Source: Caldilineaceae bacterium
GTDB taxonomy: Bacteria > Chloroflexota > Anaerolineae > Caldilineales > Caldilineaceae
Length of the DNA stretch: 20,879 nucleotides
Direction: 5' to 3'
NCBI GenBank assembly: GCA_028819675.1
Contig: JAPPKT010000044.1
Location: 1-20,879, forward strand
Positions 4,298 through 18,808 of the stretch are shown here, in pieces. The translations under genes and the position numbers were made by a program. The notes below the pieces were generated by a model, which saw only the letters and a list, made by a program, of their open reading frames with translations, did not search any database and was not told where the DNA came from. Position 1 is the stretch's first letter; the number at the start of each line of letters is the position of its first letter.

Positions 4298-7171
4298 TCA
4301 ATCGCCTGCCAGCGCCGCCAGCAGCGCCAGCGCCAACTGCTTCGTTTCCAATAATGGCCGCGGTTCCACCTGCTCCCTGCTCTGGTCCTGCGTGTCATCC
4401 CAAAACTGGACCTCTTCGCCGGAATCACCGGGCATGGCAGCCGCTTTTGCGCGTTTGGCGTCCTGCCCGCCGGCAAGCTGCGCATTGTCCACCAGCAACA
4501 CCGGCCCCACACACGCAGGGCATCCGTAGCGGCATCCGCAACTGCGGATTAAGTCCGCCGCCCCCGCCATCAGCTCGTCGTGCCGCTCATACAACTGCTC
4601 GCTGAATCCGATTCCGGCGGGAATGCGTTCGTAAATGTAGATACGCGGAGCGTTTGGCTCCTCCTGAGACGGTGGCGAAGCAGCCGGAGGTCGGTCCGAT
4701 AGCAGCACACTCTTGAGCCGCGGTCGAATGATGGCAACGTCAATATCGCGCCGGTCACACATCAGATGCAGTGGCGCCAGATTGCCTAGCGCATACGCCA
4801 CCCCGTCCATCCCGGTTCGCGCCCTGACACCTGCCTCCAGCCGGTGATGACAACGTCGGCAGAGCAGCACCAGGTTGTCGAGCCTGTTTGCCTCCAGGTC
4901 ATTTCGATTGAGCCCCGGAATATAGTTGAAGACTCGAAACGGTACCCGGTGATGCACGTCATGCTGGCGGTTGCGGGTCTCCGCCGCGCCGCACTCGGCA
5001 CAGCGGTAGCCGTCTCGTTCACGCGTCTTGGCGCGTTGCCTCTGCCAGTCAGGACCGTAGTCGTTGGGGGAATCCCGCCAGTCCCCCGCCTCCATCAGCG
5101 CCTCCTGCGCCTCAGCCGTCACTTCCAGCCAGAAGCCGGCCGTATCCAGCGTCGTCGGCGGGTAGTCAAGCGGCAGAATCCCAAGATTTTCATGCGTAAA
5201 CCGTCGCACTCGTCGGTACTGCGTTACCTGCGAGGTCACGAAAATCTCCCCGTAACCCAGCTCCGCTCCGTCGCTCACGCGGCTCCCATGCACCGATATC
5301 ACCTCAATCTCAGTTTCGCCGCTGGCCTCCGTGTAGTATTCGACGTCCGACGGCCAAACCCACGCCTGTCTTTCCTCCAAGTCCAGCTTCTCGACCAGAA
5401 AGCTGCGCCCCTCGTGAATGTAGACCGCCCCCTCATGCACCTGTAACGTCGCGTTGGCCGCGTCCACCTCTCCTACAACCGTAAATCGCTCTTCATTCTG
5501 TCTGAATGTCACGCCTGCGTCAGCCGTGCGCCGACCGCCCGTCCTCTCCTCCCTGCCTCCGCTGCCGGAATCAGTCGCCCTGTCCGAACTCCCCGCCTGG
5601 ACTACTATAGGTTCGCCGCCAACGCTTCGCAGTCCGAACTGCCGCGAAGGATATCCCTCTCCCCGCCAAATGAAGCGGCTACCGAACTGTTGCACGCTAT
5701 TCTCTTCAGCCAGCAACTCCAGTACCTCACCAGTGAAAGGGGAGCCCCCAAACCGGTCCCCTACTGCAAACGGCAGTTCAAACGCCGCGCAGCGCATCTG
5801 GTCCACCAGCAGAACCAGGTTGTCCGCGTTCGCAAATGCCCTCTCCGGTGACCGCTGCAGGAGATAATGCGGATTGTTGACCACATACTGGTCCAACGCC
5901 CCGGCCGTTGCCACCAGCACCGCCACAGACTCTCCGGTCGTTCGGCCAACCCGGCCCCACTGCTGCCACGCCGCCGCGATCGTCCCCGGGTAGCCGCAGA
6001 TCACCGCCGCCTCCAACTGGCCGATGTCAATCCCCAACTCAAGCGCATTCGTAGCAACCACTCCTCGAACGTTTCCCTTCCGCAGACCCGCCTCGATCTG
6101 ACGGCGCTCCAACGGCAAATATCCTCCCCGGTAACCACGCACTGCCCCAGGAGAGATGTGAGCAGCGTATTCCTCCCCCTCGCTACCGCTTCCCTGCAGG
6201 CCCTCCCGAATGTAGCTGAGCAGCAGTTCGACTGTCAGGCGCGCCCGGCCGAAGACAATCGTCTGCAATCCGCCCTTCAAGAACCGGATCGCCAGTTCCT
6301 GGCTTTCCAATACGCTACTCCGGCGCAAACCCTGGACCGGGTCGAACAGGGGCGGCGCGTACAACACAATGTGCTTTCGCCCCTGCGGCGCGCCGTTATT
6401 GTCGATGACTCTTGTTGGATGTTCGCTGAGGCTTTCAGCCAGTTGCTGTGGGTTGGCGATCGTTGCACTGGTCAGCAGGAATTGGGGATGGCTGCCGTAG
6501 TGGCCCGCGACCCGCCGCAGTCTCCGCAGAACATTGGCCACGTGGCTGCCGAATACCCCGCGATAGCTGTGCATTTCATCGATGATGACGTAGCGCAGTC
6601 CCGCGAAAAAGCGCGCCCATTCGCCGTGATAGGGCAGTATCCCTGCGTGCAGCATGTCCGGATTGGAGAGAACGGCGCGGGCACTTTGCCGGATCGGCCG
6701 TCGCTCCGCAGACGGCGTGTCGCCGTCGTAAGCCGCGACAGAGCCCGCACCGGCCAGCCCGTCTTCGCCGGTGGCGTCTAATGCGGCTACCTCGCCAATC
6801 CAATCTCCAAGCTCTGCCAGCTGATCGTGGGCCAGCGCCTTCGTTGGGAAGAGGAAAAGAGCCGTTGCGTCGGGATCGCTGAGCAGGGCTTGCAGCACCG
6901 GCAGAACATAACAGAGCGTCTTTCCGCTTGCTGTGGGCGTAACGACTGTGACTGAGGGGTCGCCAGCCAGGGCAGAGGTTACGGCTTCGGCCTGATGGCT
7001 GTAGATCTGCTCAATCCCCCGGCGCCGCAGCGCCTCCCTCAGCGCCGGATGCAGCTCTGCCGGCAGTTCTTCCAATTGGCCGGCGCGGGCCGGCAGCGTC
7101 TCCCAAGCGGTGACGTTGGCCATAAAGCCTCCGTCCCGGCCCAGTTCGGCGATGACATCTCCGATGCTCAT
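4298..7171 (-). CDS. MrfA/YprA-like DEAD/DEAH helicase with embedded HNH nuclease domain
   Basis: A 957-aa superfamily 2 helicase. Seen in order: Q-like region IYSHQAEA (56-63), Walker A TPTASGKT (78-85), DEMH box (198-201), SAT (235-237), TNALELGIDIG (374-384) and QQWGRVGR (403-410). A low-complexity linker follows (about 527-551), then a DUF1998/MZB C-terminal region whose zinc cysteines are Cys805, Cys878, Cys880, Cys884 and Cys887. Between FWLEV (680-684) and GVAYALGNLAPLHLMC lies an HNH domain (about 705-780): CAEC, DVHH, a DNLVLLC stretch and CRRCHH. In Bacillus subtilis MrfA works with the exonuclease MrfB in mitomycin-lesion repair; no mrfB is visible here. A later start at 7123 (Met17) has a GGAGG before it; the longer form is kept because residues 1-16 look like the usual N-terminal helix. 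It is probably the last gene of a unit with npdG and the amidohydrolase. Confidence 0.93.
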   Translation of the reverse strand: MSIGDVIAELGRDGGFMANVTAWETLPARAGQLEELPAELHPALREALRRRGIEQIYSHQAEAVTSALAGDPSVTVVTPTASGKTLCYVLPVLQALLSDPDATALFLFPTKALAHDQLAELGDWIGEVAALDATGEDGLAGAGSVAAYDGDTPSAERRPIRQSARAVLSNPDMLHAGILPYHGEWARFFAGLRYVIIDEMHSYRGVFGSHVANVLRRLRRVAGHYGSHPQFLLTSATIANPQQLAESLSEHPTRVIDNNGAPQGRKHIVLYAPPLFDPVQGLRRSSVLESQELAIRFLKGGLQTIVFGRARLTVELLLSYIREGLQGSGSEGEEYAAHISPGAVRGYRGGYLPLERRQIEAGLRKGNVRGVVATNALELGIDIGQLEAAVICGYPGTIAAAWQQWGRVGRTTGESVAVLVATAGALDQYVVNNPHYLLQRSPERAFANADNLVLLVDQMRCAAFELPFAVGDRFGGSPFTGEVLELLAEENSVQQFGSRFIWRGEGYPSRQFGLRSVGGEPIVVQAGSSDRATDSGSGGREERTGGRRTADAGVTFRQNEERFTVVGEVDAANATLQVHEGAVYIHEGRSFLVEKLDLEERQAWVWPSDVEYYTEASGETEIEVISVHGSRVSDGAELGYGEIFVTSQVTQYRRVRRFTHENLGILPLDYPPTTLDTAGFWLEVTAEAQEALMEAGDWRDSPNDYGPDWQRQRAKTRERDGYRCAECGAAETRNRQHDVHHRVPFRVFNYIPGLNRNDLEANRLDNLVLLCRRCHHRLEAGVRARTGMDGVAYALGNLAPLHLMCDRRDIDVAIIRPRLKSVLLSDRPPAASPPSQEEPNAPRIYIYERIPAGIGFSEQLYERHDELMAGAADLIRSCGCRYGCPACVGPVLLVDNAQLAGGQDAKRAKAAAMPGDSGEEVQFWDDTQDQSREQVEPRPLLETKQLALALLAALAGD

Positions 7172-10605: not shown

Positions 10606-11661
10606 ATGCACGTCGTCGTCAGTGGCTGGTTCTGGGGACAACCCAACACCGGCAGCGGACAATATCTTCACCGGCTGTTGCCCTATCTGGCGGCTCTGAA
10701 TGCGCCGTCAAGGGAAAGAAACGCCGCAGACAATCCGGGCCACCGTCAACCGCTCGACCAGGACCAAGAGGCAAACAACCGGGAACAAACCAGATTAACG
10801 CTGCTCCTTCCCGGCGAACCCGTGGACAGCAAATATTTCAGCGCGCTGGCCGCGTACCCTTCCCAGCCAACCGCCGTCGTTGCCCCGCCTCCGCCGCTCC
10901 CCCGCCAACTTGCAAAGCTCTACTGGGAACAGTTGACCGTGCCTCGCCGCGCCCGCAGTCTGGGCGCCGATCTCCTGCTCGTCCCCTATTGGGCGGCCCC
11001 CCTGTGGCAACCTACACCAACCGTCGTCACTGTCCACGACCTGATCCCCCTTCTTCTACCACCCTATCGCGGGGGATGGACGAACCGCCTCTATACCACT
11101 CTGGTCGCCAATTCGGCTCGGCGTTGTTCAGCCGTCTTGACCGTTAGCGAGGCCAGCAAACGGGACATTGTCCGTCATCTCGGCCTGCCAGATGAGCGCG
11201 TGGTAACGGTCTATCACGGCCCAAACAGGGACGACGACAGCGCGCAGCGTAGTGAAGTCGACGCCGCCCTCTCCCCCAGCCGGCAGATAGCGTGCAAGTA
11301 CGCATTGCCAGAACGCTACTTTCTCTACCTGGGGGGCTTTGACGTGCGCAAAAACCTCTTGGGGATCGTGCGTGCCTATCGCCGATATCTCGACCTCGGC
11401 GGGGATCCAGCCGTAAAGCTGGTCGTGGCGGGCAAACCGCCGCAGACGCATACTCCTTTCTTCCCGGATCCAAAGCGGCTCGTCCGCCAACTCGAACTGA
11501 CCGACTATGTGCGCTTCATCGGTTGGGTGGACGAGGAAGATAAGGAGCCGCTCTTCGCCGGCGCAACCGCCTTTCTCTTCCCAAGCTTGTATGAGGGATT
11601 CGGCATGATGCTGCTGGAGGCCATGGCCGCCGGCTCGCCGGTCATTACCAGTTCGGAGTGA
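10606..11661 (+). CDS. GT4-type glycosyltransferase, C-terminally truncated
   Basis: A 351-aa GT-B fold glycosyltransferase. The N-terminal half has the GSGQYLHRL acceptor loop and VVTVHDLIPLL. The middle has LTVSEASKRDIVRHLGLPDERV and YFLYLGGFDVRKN. The C-terminal half has VRFIGWVDEED and the donor-site EX7E motif (Glu330 and Glu338 in YEGFGMMLLEAMAAGSP). It stops 13 residues after that motif, at VITSSE, where GT4 enzymes normally continue for about 80-100 residues (the S-x-x-PE nucleotide contact and the helices closing the fold). Activity is therefore doubtful. The end overlaps the convergent LysM gene by 17 bp. The ATG at 10606 is chosen because the fold begins there (MHVVVSGW), although only a weak GGGG precedes it. 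It probably follows the epimerase in one transcript. Confidence 0.85.
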   Translation: MHVVVSGWFWGQPNTGSGQYLHRLLPYLAALNAPSRERNAADNPGHRQPLDQDQEANNREQTRLTLLLPGEPVDSKYFSALAAYPSQPTAVVAPPPPLPRQLAKLYWEQLTVPRRARSLGADLLLVPYWAAPLWQPTPTVVTVHDLIPLLLPPYRGGWTNRLYTTLVANSARRCSAVLTVSEASKRDIVRHLGLPDERVVTVYHGPNRDDDSAQRSEVDAALSPSRQIACKYALPERYFLYLGGFDVRKNLLGIVRAYRRYLDLGGDPAVKLVVAGKPPQTHTPFFPDPKRLVRQLELTDYVRFIGWVDEEDKEPLFAGATAFLFPSLYEGFGMMLLEAMAAGSPVITSSE

Positions 11662-14626
11662 GGCGGAACTCAAACTCCTCGCCGCTATTTGGTGTGTAGC
11701 AGACCTGGCGCATGTTCAGCGACGGGTGATCGCGCCCAAACTCCTCGGTGATCTGCCACAGTTCCGGGCTGTCCAGGAAAATTGACATCACTGCAGCGCA
11801 GGCCGCCACCGGGTTGGGCACCGATGTGTAGGCGGCCAGCCAGGCGCCCGCCGCTTCGGTGTATCGGCTCTCCGGATGTTCCTCTCCCAGCGTTTCCAGC
11901 AGCGACTCAGCCTCTGACCGCTGGTCGTTAAGCGTCAGAACCTGCACCAGCCGGAAGTTAGCCAGCCCCCTTAGCAGCGCCGTCTCCTCTTCGGGGTCCG
12001 TCCCCTGAACGCTGCATGGCTGCAGATTTGGCGTCTCCAGCGCATCCTTGTACAACTCAATAGCAGTCGCATAGCTCGCCCGGTTCCCCTCTGGCCCCGC
12101 CGATTGCAGCGCAATATTCGCCTCGATCAAACGCAGCCCCAGACAGTTGCTGGCTTCATTCGCACGGTCATAGGACCACGTGCGCCTACGCAGCGGCGAG
12201 CCGTCCATGCTGTACCAGATCTCCGTATGCGGTATAACCAGCCCCTTCTCCTCCCTGCCGCTGACACCGCCGCTGAACCAAAGACGACTGACACGAGGAA
12301 GATCAGATGACTCGTCTTCGACAATGTCAACCAAGACAGTGCCCTCGGCTACCGCGGCGCCCGGCCCAATCACGGACTGGTAGGCCGCCGTCTCGCTATT
12401 CCAGGTAATGGCTTCTACTGTCAGCAGACAAAACGTAGTGCAACGCTCCAACTGCCAGAATAACTCTGCCCGGCCGTCTCCGTTGGCATCACCAATCGCC
12501 AGAATGCCGGGTAGTCCCTCTATTTCCGGTGTGTAGACAGTCTCAAAGCTGCCGTCATCCTGCTGGTGCAAGATTAGAACAACACCGTCCGCCCCGCCCG
12601 GACCGTATCCATCATCGCTGACAACTGACGGCATCGCAATGACATCTTTCAGCCCATCCTGGTTCAGATCGTAGAATAGCAGTCCACCTCGGCCAGTGCC
12701 CAGCGCGTCACAGGCCTGTAGCCAAGCGTCAAGGAAAATCCTTAGCTTCAGAATTTCACCCTCCCGCCTCTCGCCGCCCGGATTTCCGTCCGAACTCTGC
12801 CCTGCGGTTAGTTCGTCGATGACCCCGGGAAGGGCCGTGAGATACTCTGCGACACTTTTTGGGCAGGGTGGCAGCCCTTCGGTCTCGGTCAGGCGTTGCT
12901 CAGGCTCTTCTTCCTGCTGTATTTCAAGGGACGGGCAGACGTCTTCGGCTGAAAATGTTGGATTGGCGTAACCGTATTCGGCCAGTATATTCACCACCTC
13001 AGGGTTCGCCTCAGCAAAATTTCTGACCGCCTCGCAGGCCGTCCTGGCATCCCCGCTCTGCCGGTACGCGGCTAACCACCGGACGCCCACCTCCGCATAG
13101 ACTTGCCTCTCGTAAGTGGACGCAAGTCTCTCCACTCGTTCCGCGGCCAGTTCAGGTTTCAATTCATAGCCTGCAATCATAGCAAGGCGGAAGAGGGCAA
13201 AGCTACGCAATTCGGCAAGTTCGTTGCTCCGTTCCCCGCATGCCTGCAAGTTCTGGTTCTCAGCAGCATCGGTATAGAGCCACTGTGCCTTTTCGAGGTA
13301 CAACTCGCTCGTCAAGGCGTGGTTGGCATCTATAACTGTATGGTAGAGGCAGAGACTAGGCATCATCCTTTCACTGCTCAAGGCGTAAGGTGCCCCGTCC
13401 GTGCTCGCCCATACAGCAAGCCGCGCTCGCTGCGGGCCGGCGCCGGCCCCGTCGTACTGGCCCCCTATCAGACGAATCTCATTGGGCCTGCCTGGCTTGT
13501 CGCTGGGGGTCAATGATACGCTGGCGCCAGCCATTGTAATCGTTCCCTTTGTCCAATCCCGCCATTCAATGCCATCCCAGCTGCGAACGTGCACCGTGAC
13601 GAAGCAGGAATTCGGTCCGCAAACCGTATCCGTCCACGCAACGTCGGTCAGACCATCGGCGTTAATGTCCTGAGTTGCCAGCAGATCGATCGATCCGGTA
13701 GCGGCGATCTTGTAGCTGAGAGAGTGGCCCTCTCCCCCGTCGAGAATCACCAGTTCCTGCTGCTCCGTGCCAATCCCGCTCCCTCGTCCCGTAACTGCGC
13801 CGGTTCGACTCTCTTCTCCATTCGTGAATACGAGAACTGCGTCATTCACGTTATCGGAAGTGAGATCGGCGTTGACCAGAGTGCGAAATTCGGCTCCGCA
13901 GTCCGCCAGAAATGAGGTCAGCTGTGCGTGGCGGTTGGATGTTGGAATCCTGAAGAGGTCGGCCAAAGTCTGGCTAAGGCCATCTTGCGCGTCCGGACAC
14001 GGGGGAAGGGTCACAACTCTGGGCAAAGGCAGGCTGATGCGTGGCATGAAAAAGGGTTCCGGCTCACCGTCCGTTGAGAGAATGGACAGGATATCCAGGA
14101 CCGGCGTTGGCGTAACCAAAGGAGAAGGTCTGTCTGCCGACGCTTCGACCTGCCCTTCTCCCTGTGTTTCGGTTGGCGCGACCGTCGGCACTGGGGTCGG
14201 CACGCCTGTCGGAGTTACAAGGCCCGAGGGGATCAGGAGCCTCTCGCCTACAAGCAGCGATTCGGTGGGACGTACTGACTTAGGATTCGCCGCCTGCAAT
14301 AGATTTACGGGCACGCCAAACTTCTCGGCCACTGAGATCCAGCCTTCTCCCCGCTGGACAATGTAAAACTCTTCGTCGCCATCCGGACTCCATGGAACAA
14401 AAAGGCTTTCGCCAACAATCAGCCATCCGTTCGGTCGCACGGAATCCGGGTTTGCCTCCTGCAGTTGGCTCACCGTCAAGCCGACGCGCTGCGCCACCAG
14501 AGGCCAGCTGTCGCCTGGCTGCACGATGTATGTATAGCCGCCCTCTTGAGCCGAAACAGAAACGAACTGCAACAGGCAAAGTAGCGCTATCAACAAGAAT
14601 ACAAACCGTATCCCCAACCTCATCAA
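11645..14626 (-). CDS. Exported LysM protein with duplicated FG-GAP-like/helical module
   Basis: A 993-aa secreted or surface protein. Residues 1-26 form a signal peptide (hydrophobic FVFLLIALLCLLQF, SVSA-QE cleavage site). Two LysM domains follow (about 31-79 and 87-133: YIVQPGDSW and YIVQRGEGW, each ending in VGExLxxP), which should bind peptidoglycan or related glycans. A Pro/Thr-rich linker spans 135-180. Then a module occurs twice, about 207-566 and 585-978. Each copy starts with LPPCP, has EF-hand-like calcium loops (DLTSDNVNDA and DINADGLTD in the first, DLNQDGLKD and DANGDGRAE in the second), a Cys pair (CGPNSC or CTTFC) and a TPR-like helical part ending in VCP or VCY. A GGGAGAG site precedes the ATG. 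Function is unknown; the layout suggests a wall-bound sensor or binding protein. Confidence 0.9.
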   Translation of the reverse strand: MMRLGIRFVFLLIALLCLLQFVSVSAQEGGYTYIVQPGDSWPLVAQRVGLTVSQLQEANPDSVRPNGWLIVGESLFVPWSPDGDEEFYIVQRGEGWISVAEKFGVPVNLLQAANPKSVRPTESLLVGERLLIPSGLVTPTGVPTPVPTVAPTETQGEGQVEASADRPSPLVTPTPVLDILSILSTDGEPEPFFMPRISLPLPRVVTLPPCPDAQDGLSQTLADLFRIPTSNRHAQLTSFLADCGAEFRTLVNADLTSDNVNDAVLVFTNGEESRTGAVTGRGSGIGTEQQELVILDGGEGHSLSYKIAATGSIDLLATQDINADGLTDVAWTDTVCGPNSCFVTVHVRSWDGIEWRDWTKGTITMAGASVSLTPSDKPGRPNEIRLIGGQYDGAGAGPQRARLAVWASTDGAPYALSSERMMPSLCLYHTVIDANHALTSELYLEKAQWLYTDAAENQNLQACGERSNELAELRSFALFRLAMIAGYELKPELAAERVERLASTYERQVYAEVGVRWLAAYRQSGDARTACEAVRNFAEANPEVVNILAEYGYANPTFSAEDVCPSLEIQQEEEPEQRLTETEGLPPCPKSVAEYLTALPGVIDELTAGQSSDGNPGGERREGEILKLRIFLDAWLQACDALGTGRGGLLFYDLNQDGLKDVIAMPSVVSDDGYGPGGADGVVLILHQQDDGSFETVYTPEIEGLPGILAIGDANGDGRAELFWQLERCTTFCLLTVEAITWNSETAAYQSVIGPGAAVAEGTVLVDIVEDESSDLPRVSRLWFSGGVSGREEKGLVIPHTEIWYSMDGSPLRRRTWSYDRANEASNCLGLRLIEANIALQSAGPEGNRASYATAIELYKDALETPNLQPCSVQGTDPEEETALLRGLANFRLVQVLTLNDQRSEAESLLETLGEEHPESRYTEAAGAWLAAYTSVPNPVAACAAVMSIFLDSPELWQITEEFGRDHPSLNMRQVCYTPNSGEEFEFRLTPNW

Positions 14627-15173: not shown

Positions 15174-16625
15174 ATGAAGTCGATTATGACGATCGAACTG
15201 ACACACATGGCCGCCAGCGGCGAAGCCTTTGGCCGCGACGAGGATGGCCGGGCAGTCTTCGTCCCCGACGCAGTCCCAGGAGAAACGGTCGAAGTCGAAA
15301 CCGCCGCAGAAGCAAAACGCTGGCGACGCGGTGTCCTTCGAAGAGTCGTGACAGCCAGCCCGGATCGCGTCGAGGCGCCTTGTCCCCACTTCGGTCCCGG
15401 GCATCCTGTGACGTCTGCTGAGGGCCAACCCCTCAATCCGTCTTGGCAGCGCGCCGGTTGCGCCGGATGTCAGTGGCAACATATAGACTACGAACGTCAG
15501 CTGTCTCTGAAAAGGGAGATAGTCGTCAACGTCCTGGCCCGCGAAGCACGCCCTGGAAATACTCGCCAGAAGAGCCGGCAGATCGCCGAACATCTGGTGG
15601 CGGACGTTATAGCCATTGGCGAACGCGCAGGCAATGAGTCCGATGACGCGCCCCCTGTGCTCGACTTCGGCTTCCGCACGCAAATGCAATTTGATTGGGC
15701 GGACTCCCAACATCTCTCCCTTGCCGGCCGCGACCAAAGACCGATGGCCGTCGACGCCTGTCTTCTCCACCACTCGCAGCTGGCCGAACTTTTCGCAGGA
15801 TTCCGTAGCGGAGGAGGAGGCAGTGAACGAGTACATGATGAGGACCTTTCTCCCCAACCCGGGATCCCCGCCCTCAACCGCGTGACGCTCGCGGTAGGCG
15901 GTACATCTGATTCTCTGAGTGATTCTGCCAAGGGCGTACTCATTCTGCACAGCGAAAGAGACAATCCACCCAACCTGGAGCTGGACCTTCCGGTGAACGT
16001 CTTCTTCCTCCACGAGGCTGACGACCCTTCGCTGGAGTTGCTCGTGGGTGACTGGAGCTACAGCCTGCAAGTAGGGGAATATCAACTCATCTCCTATCCG
16101 CCGATTAGCCGCAGCGCCTGCGACGGCCACCTGATGGCAGACGAAGTCCTGGCTGCCGTGGCGGCTGAACTGCTCGAATTGAAGACCTACGAGCACCTTC
16201 TCGAACTGTGGGCCGGCATCGGTGCTCGCGCCGCTGTCCTGTCCGAGCAGGTCGCCACGATCGTGGCCGTGGAAGAGGCAGAACTGCCCGCATCCGCTCT
16301 GCAAGCCAATCTGAAAGAGTTCGACAATGCCGACGCCTGGCATGGGGAGATGCTACCCACGATACGGAAGCTGCGTCGCGGTCGCTACCATTTTGACGCC
16401 GCCCTGCTCGCGCCGCCCGGCGGCCAAATCGAGCCAGAACTGTTTTCCCTGCTTACCCGCATGCGAATCCGTCGTTGTGCCCTCATCACTGACGAACCGG
16501 CGCGCTTGGCGCGGGCGCTCGCCGCCTTGGAAGAAGAGGGGTATCATCTGGCGGCCGTCCAGCCGGTCGATCTTCAGCCCCATCAGCCAGGTTCGACGCT
16601 TGTTGCTCGCTTTGACAGAAAGTAA
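15174..16625 (+). CDS. TrmA/RlmD-like RNA methyltransferase homologue lacking catalytic residues
   Basis: A 483-aa protein with the TrmA/RumA architecture: an N-terminal TRAM domain (about 5-60, with GEAFGR and VPGETVEVE), the four-cysteine Fe-S set (Cys70 in CPHFG, Cys96 and Cys99 in CAGCQWQHIDYE, Cys196 in VDACLL) and a C-terminal Rossmann methyltransferase fold with motif I LELWAGIGA (343-351). The active site is not conserved. The nucleophile motif SCNP reads TDEP (439-442), so Cys is Asp. DPPR reads APPG (413-416). The FxQ SAM contact reads YPP. The C-terminal T-x-H-x-E, which holds the general base, reads QPGST. It is therefore unlikely to make m5U by the known mechanism and may be an RNA-binding or Fe-S protein. 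The ATG at 15174 follows a promoter that suggests a leaderless message; ATG 15186 is an alternative. Confidence 0.85.
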   Translation: MKSIMTIELTHMAASGEAFGRDEDGRAVFVPDAVPGETVEVETAAEAKRWRRGVLRRVVTASPDRVEAPCPHFGPGHPVTSAEGQPLNPSWQRAGCAGCQWQHIDYERQLSLKREIVVNVLAREARPGNTRQKSRQIAEHLVADVIAIGERAGNESDDAPPVLDFGFRTQMQFDWADSQHLSLAGRDQRPMAVDACLLHHSQLAELFAGFRSGGGGSERVHDEDLSPQPGIPALNRVTLAVGGTSDSLSDSAKGVLILHSERDNPPNLELDLPVNVFFLHEADDPSLELLVGDWSYSLQVGEYQLISYPPISRSACDGHLMADEVLAAVAAELLELKTYEHLLELWAGIGARAAVLSEQVATIVAVEEAELPASALQANLKEFDNADAWHGEMLPTIRKLRRGRYHFDAALLAPPGGQIEPELFSLLTRMRIRRCALITDEPARLARALAALEEEGYHLAAVQPVDLQPHQPGSTLVARFDRK

Positions 16626-17871: not shown

Positions 17872-18324
17872 ATGTTTCAGGAAGCCATTGCCAAGCTCAT
17901 CGCCAGGACCGCGGTCGATACCGCCAGTGCTCACTGTGACGGCCCTTGCGGCGTCTATGACCCGGCCTCCGCACGCATCGCCGCCGAAGCGGCCCTTTCG
18001 ATGACCCAAAAGATCATCGACCTTGGCCCGGCAGAGTCCGCCGACCACAACACCTATGGCCGCTTCGTTACGATTAAGGAACAGCAGGCACACTTGGCTA
18101 AGGAGGAGTTGCTCATCCTCTGGACCGACTACTTCAAGCCGGAGCACTTGGAGCAATACCCGGATCTGCATGATAAGTTCTGGAATGCTGCCAAGCTTTG
18201 CTCGGCCGTAAAGCAGGGCGTGGATGTCGATGCAGCCAATGATCTGATGGCGGCCATCGAGGATATCCACAACGTCTACTGGGCCACCAAGGGCCGGGAC
18301 GTAGCCTACTACGTGGCTGCCTGA
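17872..18324 (+). CDS. sodN: Nickel superoxide dismutase
   Basis: A 150-aa Ni-SOD precursor that turns superoxide into oxygen and hydrogen peroxide. The nickel hook is clear at HCDGPCGVYDP (residues 21-31). After cleavage before His21, the new amino terminus, His21, Cys22 and Cys26 bind nickel, with Pro25 and Tyr29 in their usual places. Residues 1-20 are therefore a removable leader. The remainder is helical, as expected of the four-helix bundle that builds the hexamer, with conserved-looking DHNTYGRFVTIKE (58-70). The ATG has AAAGGA about seven bases upstream. The gene has a strong promoter and is followed by a hairpin and then the protease gene sodX, the usual partner. The alternative translation on the opposite strand has no family features. 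Confidence 0.97.
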   Translation: MFQEAIAKLIARTAVDTASAHCDGPCGVYDPASARIAAEAALSMTQKIIDLGPAESADHNTYGRFVTIKEQQAHLAKEELLILWTDYFKPEHLEQYPDLHDKFWNAAKLCSAVKQGVDVDAANDLMAAIEDIHNVYWATKGRDVAYYVAA

Positions 18325-18377
18325 TCCTGGCACACCAGAACCGGTCTGACCACGCAGACCGATCACAACGTATACCA

Positions 18378-18420
18378 AGAGACAGCGGCCGGATCCGTAA
18401 CTGGATCCGGTCTCTCTTTT
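18378..18420 (+). terminator. Intrinsic terminator or attenuator between sodN and sodX
   Basis: CCGGATCC (18389-18396) and GGATCCGG (18403-18410) form a perfect 8-bp stem with loop GTAACT. The stem can be extended by AGAGA (18378-18382) pairing with TCTCT (18411-18415). The run TCTCTCTTTT follows directly (18411-18420). It starts 54 bases after the sodN stop and its T-run ends ten bases before the sodX ATG. If read through, it would set a high SodN to SodX ratio. Confidence 0.7.
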
Positions 18421-18430
18421 GGAGAGGGAA

Positions 18431-18808
18431 ATGGAAGTGGAGGTACCCCGGAGCGGCTGGAGGGAGATGGCGCTGTGGCTGATCCGCAGGCGTCGGCTCA
18501 TTCGCGTGTCCGGCGACTCGATGACGCCGACTCTTATGTCCGGCGCCGTGGTGATGCTGGATCCCCAAGCTTTTCGCCGGCAGATGCCGCAAGAGCATGA
18601 GATTGTCGTCGCCCGCCACCCTCGCCAAACCGAGCTCCAAATTGTCAAACGGGTGGCAGCAGTAATCGAGAGCCCTATCGAAAGCGGGTCCCCAGAAATT
18701 CTGCTCATTCTTGCCAGCGAAAACGCTGCGGCCGGATCCGACAGCCGTACATTCGGGCCGGTAGGATTGGACCTGGTGCTGGGCAAGGTCGTCAGTCGCC
18801 TGCTCTGA
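18431..18808 (+). CDS. sodX: Nickel-type superoxide dismutase maturation protease
   Basis: A 125-aa S24/S26-type serine peptidase that removes the SodN leader to expose the nickel-binding His. The catalytic pair is visible: Ser30 in VSGDSMTPTL (27-36) and Lys73 in IVKRV (71-75). The C-terminal GSDSRTFGPV (102-111) is the usual signal-peptidase box E. There is no obvious membrane anchor, so it should act in the cytoplasm. ATG 18431 is chosen because GGAG/AGGGA lies four to six bases upstream; an in-frame TTG at 18419 overlaps the terminator T-run and is less likely. The gene directly follows sodN, as in most genomes with Ni-SOD. Confidence 0.94.
   Translation: MEVEVPRSGWREMALWLIRRRRLIRVSGDSMTPTLMSGAVVMLDPQAFRRQMPQEHEIVVARHPRQTELQIVKRVAAVIESPIESGSPEILLILASENAAAGSDSRTFGPVGLDLVLGKVVSRLL

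What the first reader, a model, noticed from the sequence alone, without database searches (positions are those of the whole stretch)
4832..5059. HNH nuclease domain embedded inside an MrfA/YprA-like helicase
Residues about 705-780 of the 957-aa helicase form what looks like a complete zinc-stabilised HNH (beta-beta-alpha-metal) domain: CAEC (724-727), DVHH (738-741), Asn766 in DNLVLLC and CRRCHH (771-776). It lies between FWLEV (680-684) and GVAYALGNLAPLHLMC, two parts of the DUF1998/MZB region that I expect to be near each other in ordinary MrfA/YprA proteins. The helicase motifs and the MZB cysteines are intact on both sides, so this looks like a functional insertion and not decay. In B. 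subtilis the nuclease MrfB is a separate protein. A nuclease in cis could make a one-protein lesion-excision or DNA-defence machine (DUF1998 helicases also occur in DISARM-type systems). I do not know of a described protein with this layout.
Basis: partly seen in the sequence, partly recalled or inferred. Interest (0 to 1): 0.75.

Follow-up and report, generated by a model that had tools for sequence, protein, structure and literature searches.

The report
DNA-repair helicase with built-in HNH nuclease
A bacterial DNA-repair motor protein (MrfA) in this window, and in most sampled relatives of its class of Chloroflexota, carries a DNA-cutting type of domain (HNH) inside its own fold, usually in genomes that also encode the repair exonuclease MrfB, which suggests a repair machine that can make its own first cut.

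Summary
The 957-aa gene at 4298-7171 (-) is an MrfA-type helicase. About 100 residues (688-789) are inserted between its CON region and its MZB domain, where B. subtilis MrfA and eight sampled paralogs of the class have none. The insert is an HNH endonuclease domain: PF01844 scores above its cut-off, the predicted fold matches HNH proteins best, and the zinc cysteines and HH/N/H residues are invariant in 121 of 121 near and 51 of 51 diverse homologues. It is no one-off: 103 of 140 sampled genomes of its class carry it; in a phylum-wide draw of 201 genomes, 25 of 26 carriers were in that class.

MrfB is not replaced: it was found in 91 of 103 HNH-MrfA genomes (9 of 37 without), at least ten times directly downstream. 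I saw no defence context. Best explanation: the HNH was added to an MrfAB repair pair and makes the incision giving MrfB its 3' end, perhaps ATP-coupled as in ZRANB3. Cutting itself is untested. Six searches of an open-licence library found no description. A new variant of a known kind.

The parts
4298..7171 (-). HNH-MrfA gene, 957 aa: DEAD-type motor, winged helix, OB/CON region, HNH insert, MZB
6386..7006 (-). RecA1 motor domain (residues 56-262; Walker A PTASGKT 79-85, DEMH 198-201)
   Evidence: boundaries set by me
5837..6385 (-). RecA2 motor domain (residues 263-445; motif VI 403-410)
   Evidence: boundaries set by me
5582..5836 (-). winged-helix region (446-530); weak WHD_HRQ1 hit, 20.3 bits, below cut-off 27 in the window protein
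   Evidence: above cut-off in relatives L049, L062, L164
5111..5491 (-). OB/CON region (561-687), aligned to MrfA from residue 511 to 635; domain names taken from the literature
4805..5110 (-). whole insert (residues 688-789), absent from B. subtilis MrfA and from eight non-HNH paralogs
4838..5002 (-). Pfam HNH domain PF01844 (724-778)
   Evidence: fold
4991..5002 (-). C724-x-x-C727, first half of the zinc site
4949..4960 (-). D738-V-H740-H741: H740 putative metal ligand, H741 putative general base
   Evidence: roles inferred from HNH family knowledge
4874..4876 (-). N766 of the HNH motif
4847..4861 (-). C771-x-x-C774-H775: second half of the zinc site and third HNH histidine
4502..4804 (-). 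MZB / DUF1998 region (790-890) with C878, C880, C884, C887 conserved in 120 of 121

Best explanation
The gene encodes the MrfA helicase of an MrfAB-type excision-repair pair into which an HNH endonuclease has been built, at the CON-MZB junction of the canopy over the motor. Proposed working: (1) the MrfA motor loads on and unwinds damaged DNA 3' to 5' (reported for B. subtilis MrfA; inferred here); (2) the HNH domain, positioned by the moving canopy, nicks the exposed strand near the lesion, probably only while ATP is hydrolysed, as in ZRANB3 (inferred); (3) the new 3' end is passed to the separate exonuclease MrfB, which trims through the lesion, and polymerase and ligase fill in (inferred). 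Shown here: the architecture, the HNH fold prediction, near-absolute conservation of the active-site residues, purifying selection, concentration in one class, and genomic coupling to MrfB. Not shown: any nuclease activity, its substrate, or contact with MrfB.
Against: No biochemistry. MrfAB pairs without HNH exist, even in this class (G094, G116), so an HNH is not required for MrfAB everywhere. mrfB was not near HNH-mrfA in most of the 91 genomes, including the window's genus. 12 of 103 HNH-MrfA genomes gave no MrfB hit, though only 12 first-look candidates per genome were scored and many assemblies are fragmentary. Of the nine MrfB-only genomes, two have the non-HNH mrfA, four have only partial MrfA-like matches or a mixture (G050, G121, G124, G145; the G124 piece, 43% identical, may be of the distant kind) and three gave no MrfA hit (G070, G093, G118). 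Some MrfB frames hold a stop (G052, G098, G107, G153). In 2 of the 103 genomes (G084, G143) the insert matched only in two pieces, and active-site residues were not checked in all 103. In two of eight pairs the insert's dN/dS is clearly above the motor's. The HNH-like fold also occurs in DotN, which the fold list includes and for which I recall no nuclease role, so fold alone does not prove cutting. The model has no DNA or metal, and I could not measure the distance from H741 to the DNA path.
Confidence: 0.5

Rival explanations
1. Structure-specific, ATP-dependent endonuclease acting at stalled forks or crosslinks, like ZRANB3, largely independent of MrfB.
For: ZRANB3 joins an ATP motor and an HNH domain, and its cutting depends strictly on ATP hydrolysis (PMC5481773, passages); a weak profile match of the insert to ZRANB3 (5mkw, E 0.054). 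12 of 103 HNH-MrfA genomes show no MrfB hit.
Against: MrfB co-occurrence and linkage; the motor is MrfA, not SNF2.
Confidence: 0.2
2. Antiphage defence effector: the helicase opens foreign DNA and the HNH degrades it, akin to DISARM, Druantia or Zorya components.
For: [quoted passage not shown] the insert region matches ZorE weakly (residues 698-777; 21.4 bits against cut-off 600).
Against: Of ten neighbours scanned, the eight with a Pfam match are metabolic or housekeeping (RNase HII, F420 oxidoreductase, amidohydrolase, epimerases, glycosyltransferase, Ni-SOD). Among the 14 largest neighbour clusters over 88 loci plus the window, judged by eye, I recognised no methylase or defence gene; MrfB was there (7 loci). 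Broad presence in the class rather than patchiness. The 25 listed of 67 PADLOC hits lie in the generic motor.
Confidence: 0.1
3. The HNH fold is kept only as a zinc-stabilised DNA-binding or structural element without cutting.
For: A zinc scaffold would also conserve the four cysteines; defence YprA lineages carry inserted zinc motifs in the canopy (PMC12458937, passages); DotN, in the fold list, is an HNH-like protein for which I recall no nuclease activity.
Against: H740, H741, N766 and H775 are invariant in 51 of 51 diverse inserts besides the cysteines; a scaffold would not need them.
Confidence: 0.1
4. Annotation artefact: assembly chimera, intein or homing-type insertion, or decayed domain.
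For: HNH domains are common in mobile elements, and HNH stretches of viral contigs resemble the insert at 26-47% identity.
Against: The same place in many independent genomes, 80 of 80 named loci; long-term purifying selection; the window frame is unbroken; no intein domain in the Pfam scan.
Confidence: 0.01

Closest known systems
B. subtilis MrfA/YprA (PDB 6znp, 6znq, 6zns) with MrfB (8un9)
   Same: Motor, CON and MZB align over the full length; MrfB found in most of the genomes with HNH-MrfA.
   Different: B. subtilis MrfA has no insert between residues 635 and 650; no endonuclease is named in the passages on its pathway that I saw.
Chloroflexota MrfAB without HNH (G094, G116)
   Same: Adjacent mrfA and mrfB genes; 55-56% identity to an HNH-MrfA of the class over its residues 5-644.
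   Different: Clean absence of the insert.
ZRANB3 (human annealing helicase and endonuclease)
   Same: ATP motor plus HNH with a C-x-x-C zinc site in one chain; cutting depends on ATP hydrolysis (PMC5481773, passages).
   Different: SNF2-type motor (recalled), HNH at the C-terminus, PCNA motifs; eukaryotic.
Defence YprA helicases with fused nucleases (ARMADA Vsr, Druantia III PLD)
   Same: YprA-family motor plus nuclease in one chain (PMC12458937, passages).
   Different: Nuclease at the C-terminus, of Vsr or PLD type, in multi-gene defence operons; that paper describes canopy interruptions as a feature of defensive homologues compared with the YprA-only and MrfAB branches.
Phage-type standalone HNH endonucleases (GVE2 HNH, 5h0m)
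   Same: Best sequence and fold match of the insert in the PDB.
   Different: Standalone small protein; no helicase.
Type I CRISPR Cas5-HNH / I-E-HNH Cascade
   Different: Cascade component, unrelated to the MrfA motor.

Membership tests
MrfA (YprA/DUF1998 repair helicase) | DEAD-type SF2 motor with intact motifs | tested here: met
   PF00270 99.4 bits, PF00271 38.3 bits; motifs conserved
MrfA (YprA/DUF1998 repair helicase) | MZB domain with four cysteines | tested here: met
   PF09369 66.4 bits; C878, C880, C884, C887 in 120 of 121
MrfA (YprA/DUF1998 repair helicase) | Winged helix between RecA2 and the canopy | tested here: inconclusive
   WHD_HRQ1 20.3 bits, below cut-off 27, in the window; above cut-off in L049 and L062
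MrfA (YprA/DUF1998 repair helicase) | Full-length structural match to MrfA | tested here: met
   predicted model, pLDDT 83.8; 6znp E 1.1e-73 over 908 columns, the four best matches all MrfA
MrfA (YprA/DUF1998 repair helicase) | Uninterrupted CON-MZB junction, as in B. subtilis MrfA | tested here: not met
   about 100-residue HNH insert; hence a variant
MrfA (YprA/DUF1998 repair helicase) | 3'-5' helicase activity and DNA-damage role | not testable with these tools
   needs biochemistry and genetics
HNH (beta-beta-alpha-metal) endonuclease | Pfam HNH above gathering score | tested here: met
   26.7 against 21.4 bits; 30.5 and 35.2 bits in L049 and L062
HNH (beta-beta-alpha-metal) endonuclease | Conserved HH/N/H and zinc cysteines | tested here: met
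   51 of 51 and 121 of 121
HNH (beta-beta-alpha-metal) endonuclease | HNH fold | tested here: met
HNH (beta-beta-alpha-metal) endonuclease | Metal-dependent DNA cleavage | not testable with these tools
   no assay
TIGR03817 (DECH_helic) | Curated NCBIfam cut-off | tested here: not met
   594.5 against cut-off 874.1 bits
DISARM / Druantia / ARMADA defence helicase | Operon with methylase, PLD nuclease or second defence helicase | tested here: not met
   none among the window neighbours scanned (not every ORF was scanned); none recognised by eye in the 14 largest clusters
ZRANB3 | C-terminal HNH on a non-MrfA motor | tested here: not met
   motor matches MrfA and the HNH is internal

The most novel reading that the evidence does not exclude
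The HNH-MrfA plus MrfB pair is a complete UvrABC-independent excision-repair machine: one polypeptide opens damaged DNA and makes the incision, a second trims the lesion away. It would reveal by fusion an incision step that is unassigned, as far as I could see, in the B. subtilis MrfAB pathway.
Probability: 0.4. Interest if true: 0.82.

Novelty: new variant of a known kind. Interest (0 to 1): 0.6.

Why it matters
MrfB is a 3'-5' exonuclease that acted from a free 3' end and not from a 5' end, and the 2024 MrfB paper leaves the pathway's other partners open; a word search of its main text found neither 'incision' nor 'endonuclease' (PMC11194089). A lineage that has built an active-looking endonuclease into MrfA offers a concrete, testable candidate for that step, a possible ATP-gated HNH nuclease in bacteria, and a caution that YprA helicases with canopy inserts need not be defence proteins.

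Tried and rejected
MrfB replacement by the HNH: rejected, since MrfB co-occurs. Defence island: no support. Viral carriage of the whole gene: 75 viral loci held HNH frames (median stop-to-stop length 208 codons, longest 680), none with the helicase or MZB. Loss of UvrC as the reason for the HNH: rejected, UvrC domain in 20 of 20 HNH-MrfA genomes that I picked for the test, and in 24 of 25 genomes overall.

Phylogeny: with distant paralogs as root, HNH forms looked paraphyletic (3 changes), with long branches flagged and many open forks. With close relatives only, the free quick tree needed 2 changes, and its starred branches alone forced 2, which speaks against one origin; but a tree with one clean HNH/non-HNH split scored 27 log units higher than that free tree and was not rejected (p-AU 0.774). 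Single origin is therefore allowed, not proven, and gain against loss is not settled. Row handling: one search miscoded L102 and L154 through a too strict pattern, corrected; six rows fell out because my frame picker failed on them (L200-L202, L212-L214); one search left out the distant outgroups and 14 named near-duplicates. The trees used 38 of the 80 named loci.

Limits of the counts. The genome-contig scan confirmed 228 stretches but returned only 80; the taxonomy of the other 148 is unseen. Adjacent mrfA-mrfB pairs in the class sample were matched by eye from two lists, so ten is a lower bound; one of the ten (G153) has a stop inside mrfB. Some named loci and G genomes are the same genome (for example L107 and G131, L108 and G089, by coordinates), so those counts are not independent. 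Presence calls rest on first-look candidates (12 scored per genome for MrfB, 32 for the insert in the class draw), so absences are soft. One search covered 36 of the 37 class genomes without HNH-MrfA. G027's RNase_H_2 protein is not MrfB proper (48 bits against 500 and more). Of the ten genomes counted as having only the distant non-HNH helicase, four (G027, G030, G033, G037) were placed by tree and six by identity alone. One search used a simple ORF picker; only its 14 largest clusters were seen, and they were not run against Pfam. The profile search of the PDB with the insert also gave weak chance-like hits (ribosomal S14, a crystallin).

Papers: PMC12458937 (abstract, passages, figure legends), PMC11194089 (start of abstract, passages), PMC5481773 (start of abstract, passages), PMC13192584 (start of abstract, passages); the MrfA structure paper was not held. 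Searches for a description in print: in a library of open-licence PubMed Central papers only; supplements could not be read. Names recalled rather than tested: OB/CON boundaries, roles of individual HNH and DEDDh residues, the ZRANB3 motor type, and DotN's lack of nuclease activity.
Full report
What is there. The minus-strand gene at 4298-7171 encodes 957 residues. Pfam finds DEAD (58-242), Helicase_C (347-411), HNH PF01844 (724-778; 26.7 bits against a cut-off of 21.4) and MZB (792-888). The best solved relative is B. subtilis MrfA/YprA (6znp, E 7.5e-189) in three stretches: query 16-525, 563-687 and 790-890. The last two meet MrfA at residues 635 and 650, so residues 688-789 are extra. Within the same bacterial class, eight sampled MrfA paralogs of 758-940 aa have a plain gap at this place.

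It is maintained. Mean column entropy of the HNH (0.87) is like that of the two motor domains (0.88 and 0.86) and below OB/CON (1.24) and MZB (1.34). In eight pairs from the window's genus the insert's dN/dS is 0.06 to 0.30, with small counts; in two of them (window-L001, L002-L003) it is clearly above the motor's.

Where it occurs. The genome-contig scan confirmed 228 stretches and returned 80; all 80 carry the insert in an MrfA-like frame and hold the C..C-HH-N-C..CH signature. 79 titles name Chloroflexota groups; one is an unnamed 'bacterium' that nests among them in the tree. In an even draw of 140 genomes of the class (completeness 85 or more), 103 have it; in two of these, G084 and G143, the match comes in two pieces. 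In 201 genomes drawn across the phylum, 26 have it, 25 in the class and one outside in a genome with 8% contamination. Several named close relatives of the window protein are Caldilineaceae.

MrfB. PF13482 and an alignment of 19 MrfB-like proteins (D104, E106, D170, H256 and D260 of the first row, which I take for the DEDDh residues, invariant) were used. Two representatives match the solved exonuclease MrfB (8un9) at 2.2e-35 and 2.2e-21. MrfB is found in 100 of 140 class genomes: 91 of 103 with HNH-MrfA and 9 of 37 without (Fisher p 1.1e-12, not corrected for phylogeny). In at least ten genomes (G036, G053, G079, G088, G089, G112, G131, G153, G158, G160) mrfB begins within 1 kb after the insert on the same strand; the G153 copy holds a stop. 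Among the 80 named loci mrfB follows within 0.6 kb in L107, L108, L148 and L156 (L107 and L108 are two of the ten again). In the genomes of the window's genus that I compared, the two genes lie at separate places. Of 36 class genomes without a detected HNH-MrfA that were searched again, 17 have an MrfA-like match. In ten it is one long match to a more distant non-HNH helicase, and none of these ten has MrfB. G094 and G116 have adjacent mrfA-mrfB in which mrfA lacks the HNH. The other five (G050, G121, G124, G144, G145) show fragments or mixtures, and four of them have MrfB; three further genomes have MrfB and no MrfA-like match. On balance the HNH looks like an addition to an MrfAB pair, not a substitute for MrfB.

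Evolution. On close relatives, with the insert's columns left out, the free quick tree needs two changes and its starred branches force two, yet a tree with a single HNH/non-HNH split has a higher likelihood and is not rejected (p-AU 0.774). Rooted trees with distant paralogs put non-HNH forms inside the HNH forms, with long branches and many weak forks. One origin is allowed; gain against loss is open. Small phage-type HNH proteins are a likely source pool, an inference.

Context. Ten window neighbours were scanned: RNase HII (convergent), two short epimerases, an F420-type oxidoreductase, an amidohydrolase, a further epimerase, a glycosyltransferase and a Ni-SOD; two had no Pfam match. RNase HII, LysM/FG-GAP and epimerase genes recur at the locus in three other genomes of the genus (G004, G012, G016). 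Among the 14 largest neighbour clusters over 88 loci plus the window I recognised no defence gene by eye. UvrC is present in 20 of 20 HNH-MrfA genomes tested, so the protein does not stand in for UvrC.

Mechanism. MrfB acts from a free 3' end, degrades nicked DNA, works with MrfA independently of UvrABC in B. subtilis, and the authors expect unknown partners (PMC11194089, passages). ZRANB3 shows that an HNH in an ATP motor protein can be strictly ATP-dependent (PMC5481773, passages). From this I infer that the HNH of MrfA makes the incision that MrfB extends. That inference carries about 0.5; the architecture itself is close to certain.

Known or new. The broadest family survey I found (PMC12458937; abstract, passages and figure legends read) describes canopy interruptions as a feature of the defence branches compared with the YprA-only and MrfAB branches, names Vsr, PLD, PD-(D/E)xK, EEP, RNase H-fold and MrfB nucleases in the passages I saw, and holds the word HNH once, in a reference title. 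Searches found no description of an HNH-containing MrfA. Databases do hold such proteins under 'DEAD/DEAH box helicase', 114 of the 120 listed hits with PF01844 precomputed, so the sequence is catalogued but, as far as I could see, not discussed.

Noticed in passing
window 17872-18808 (+): Ni-containing superoxide dismutase followed by a small S26-type protease resembling the Ni-SOD maturation protease (TIGR02754, 62.9 bits, just under its cut-off 63.25): a sodN-sodX-like pair.
   Followed up: partly
window 11645-14626 (-): 993-aa protein with LysM and an FG-GAP repeat, recurring at the same locus in three other genomes of the genus.
   Followed up: partly
L074:7781-10453 (-), genome G018: MrfB lies in the C-terminal half of an 890-aa open frame; the first about 550 residues have no Pfam match. 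Fusion, or a frame merely open upstream.
   Followed up: partly
L163 (1471-3756 +) and L164 (1495-3762 +), genomes G116 and G094: mrfA-mrfB neighbours in the same class in which MrfA lacks the HNH: a natural comparison pair for testing the insert.
   Followed up: yes
G039 C206 and C212 (L055, L056): Two HNH-MrfA copies in one genome.
   Followed up: no
L208, L209 (genomes G198, G205, same phylum, outside the class): MrfA-like frames of 848 and 940 aa without HNH; they may carry other extensions or insertions.
   Followed up: no
G171 C541 (L203): The only HNH-MrfA seen outside the class in the phylum sample, in a genome with 8% contamination: transfer or mis-binning.
   Followed up: no
G084 C89 and G143 C237: The HNH insert matches in two pieces with a gap between them in one open frame, as if the HNH itself held a further insertion.
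   Followed up: no
window 15174-16625 (+): RlmD-like rRNA methyltransferase candidate: 124.5 bits to TIGR00479, below its cut-off 183.55, and no Pfam match.
   Followed up: no
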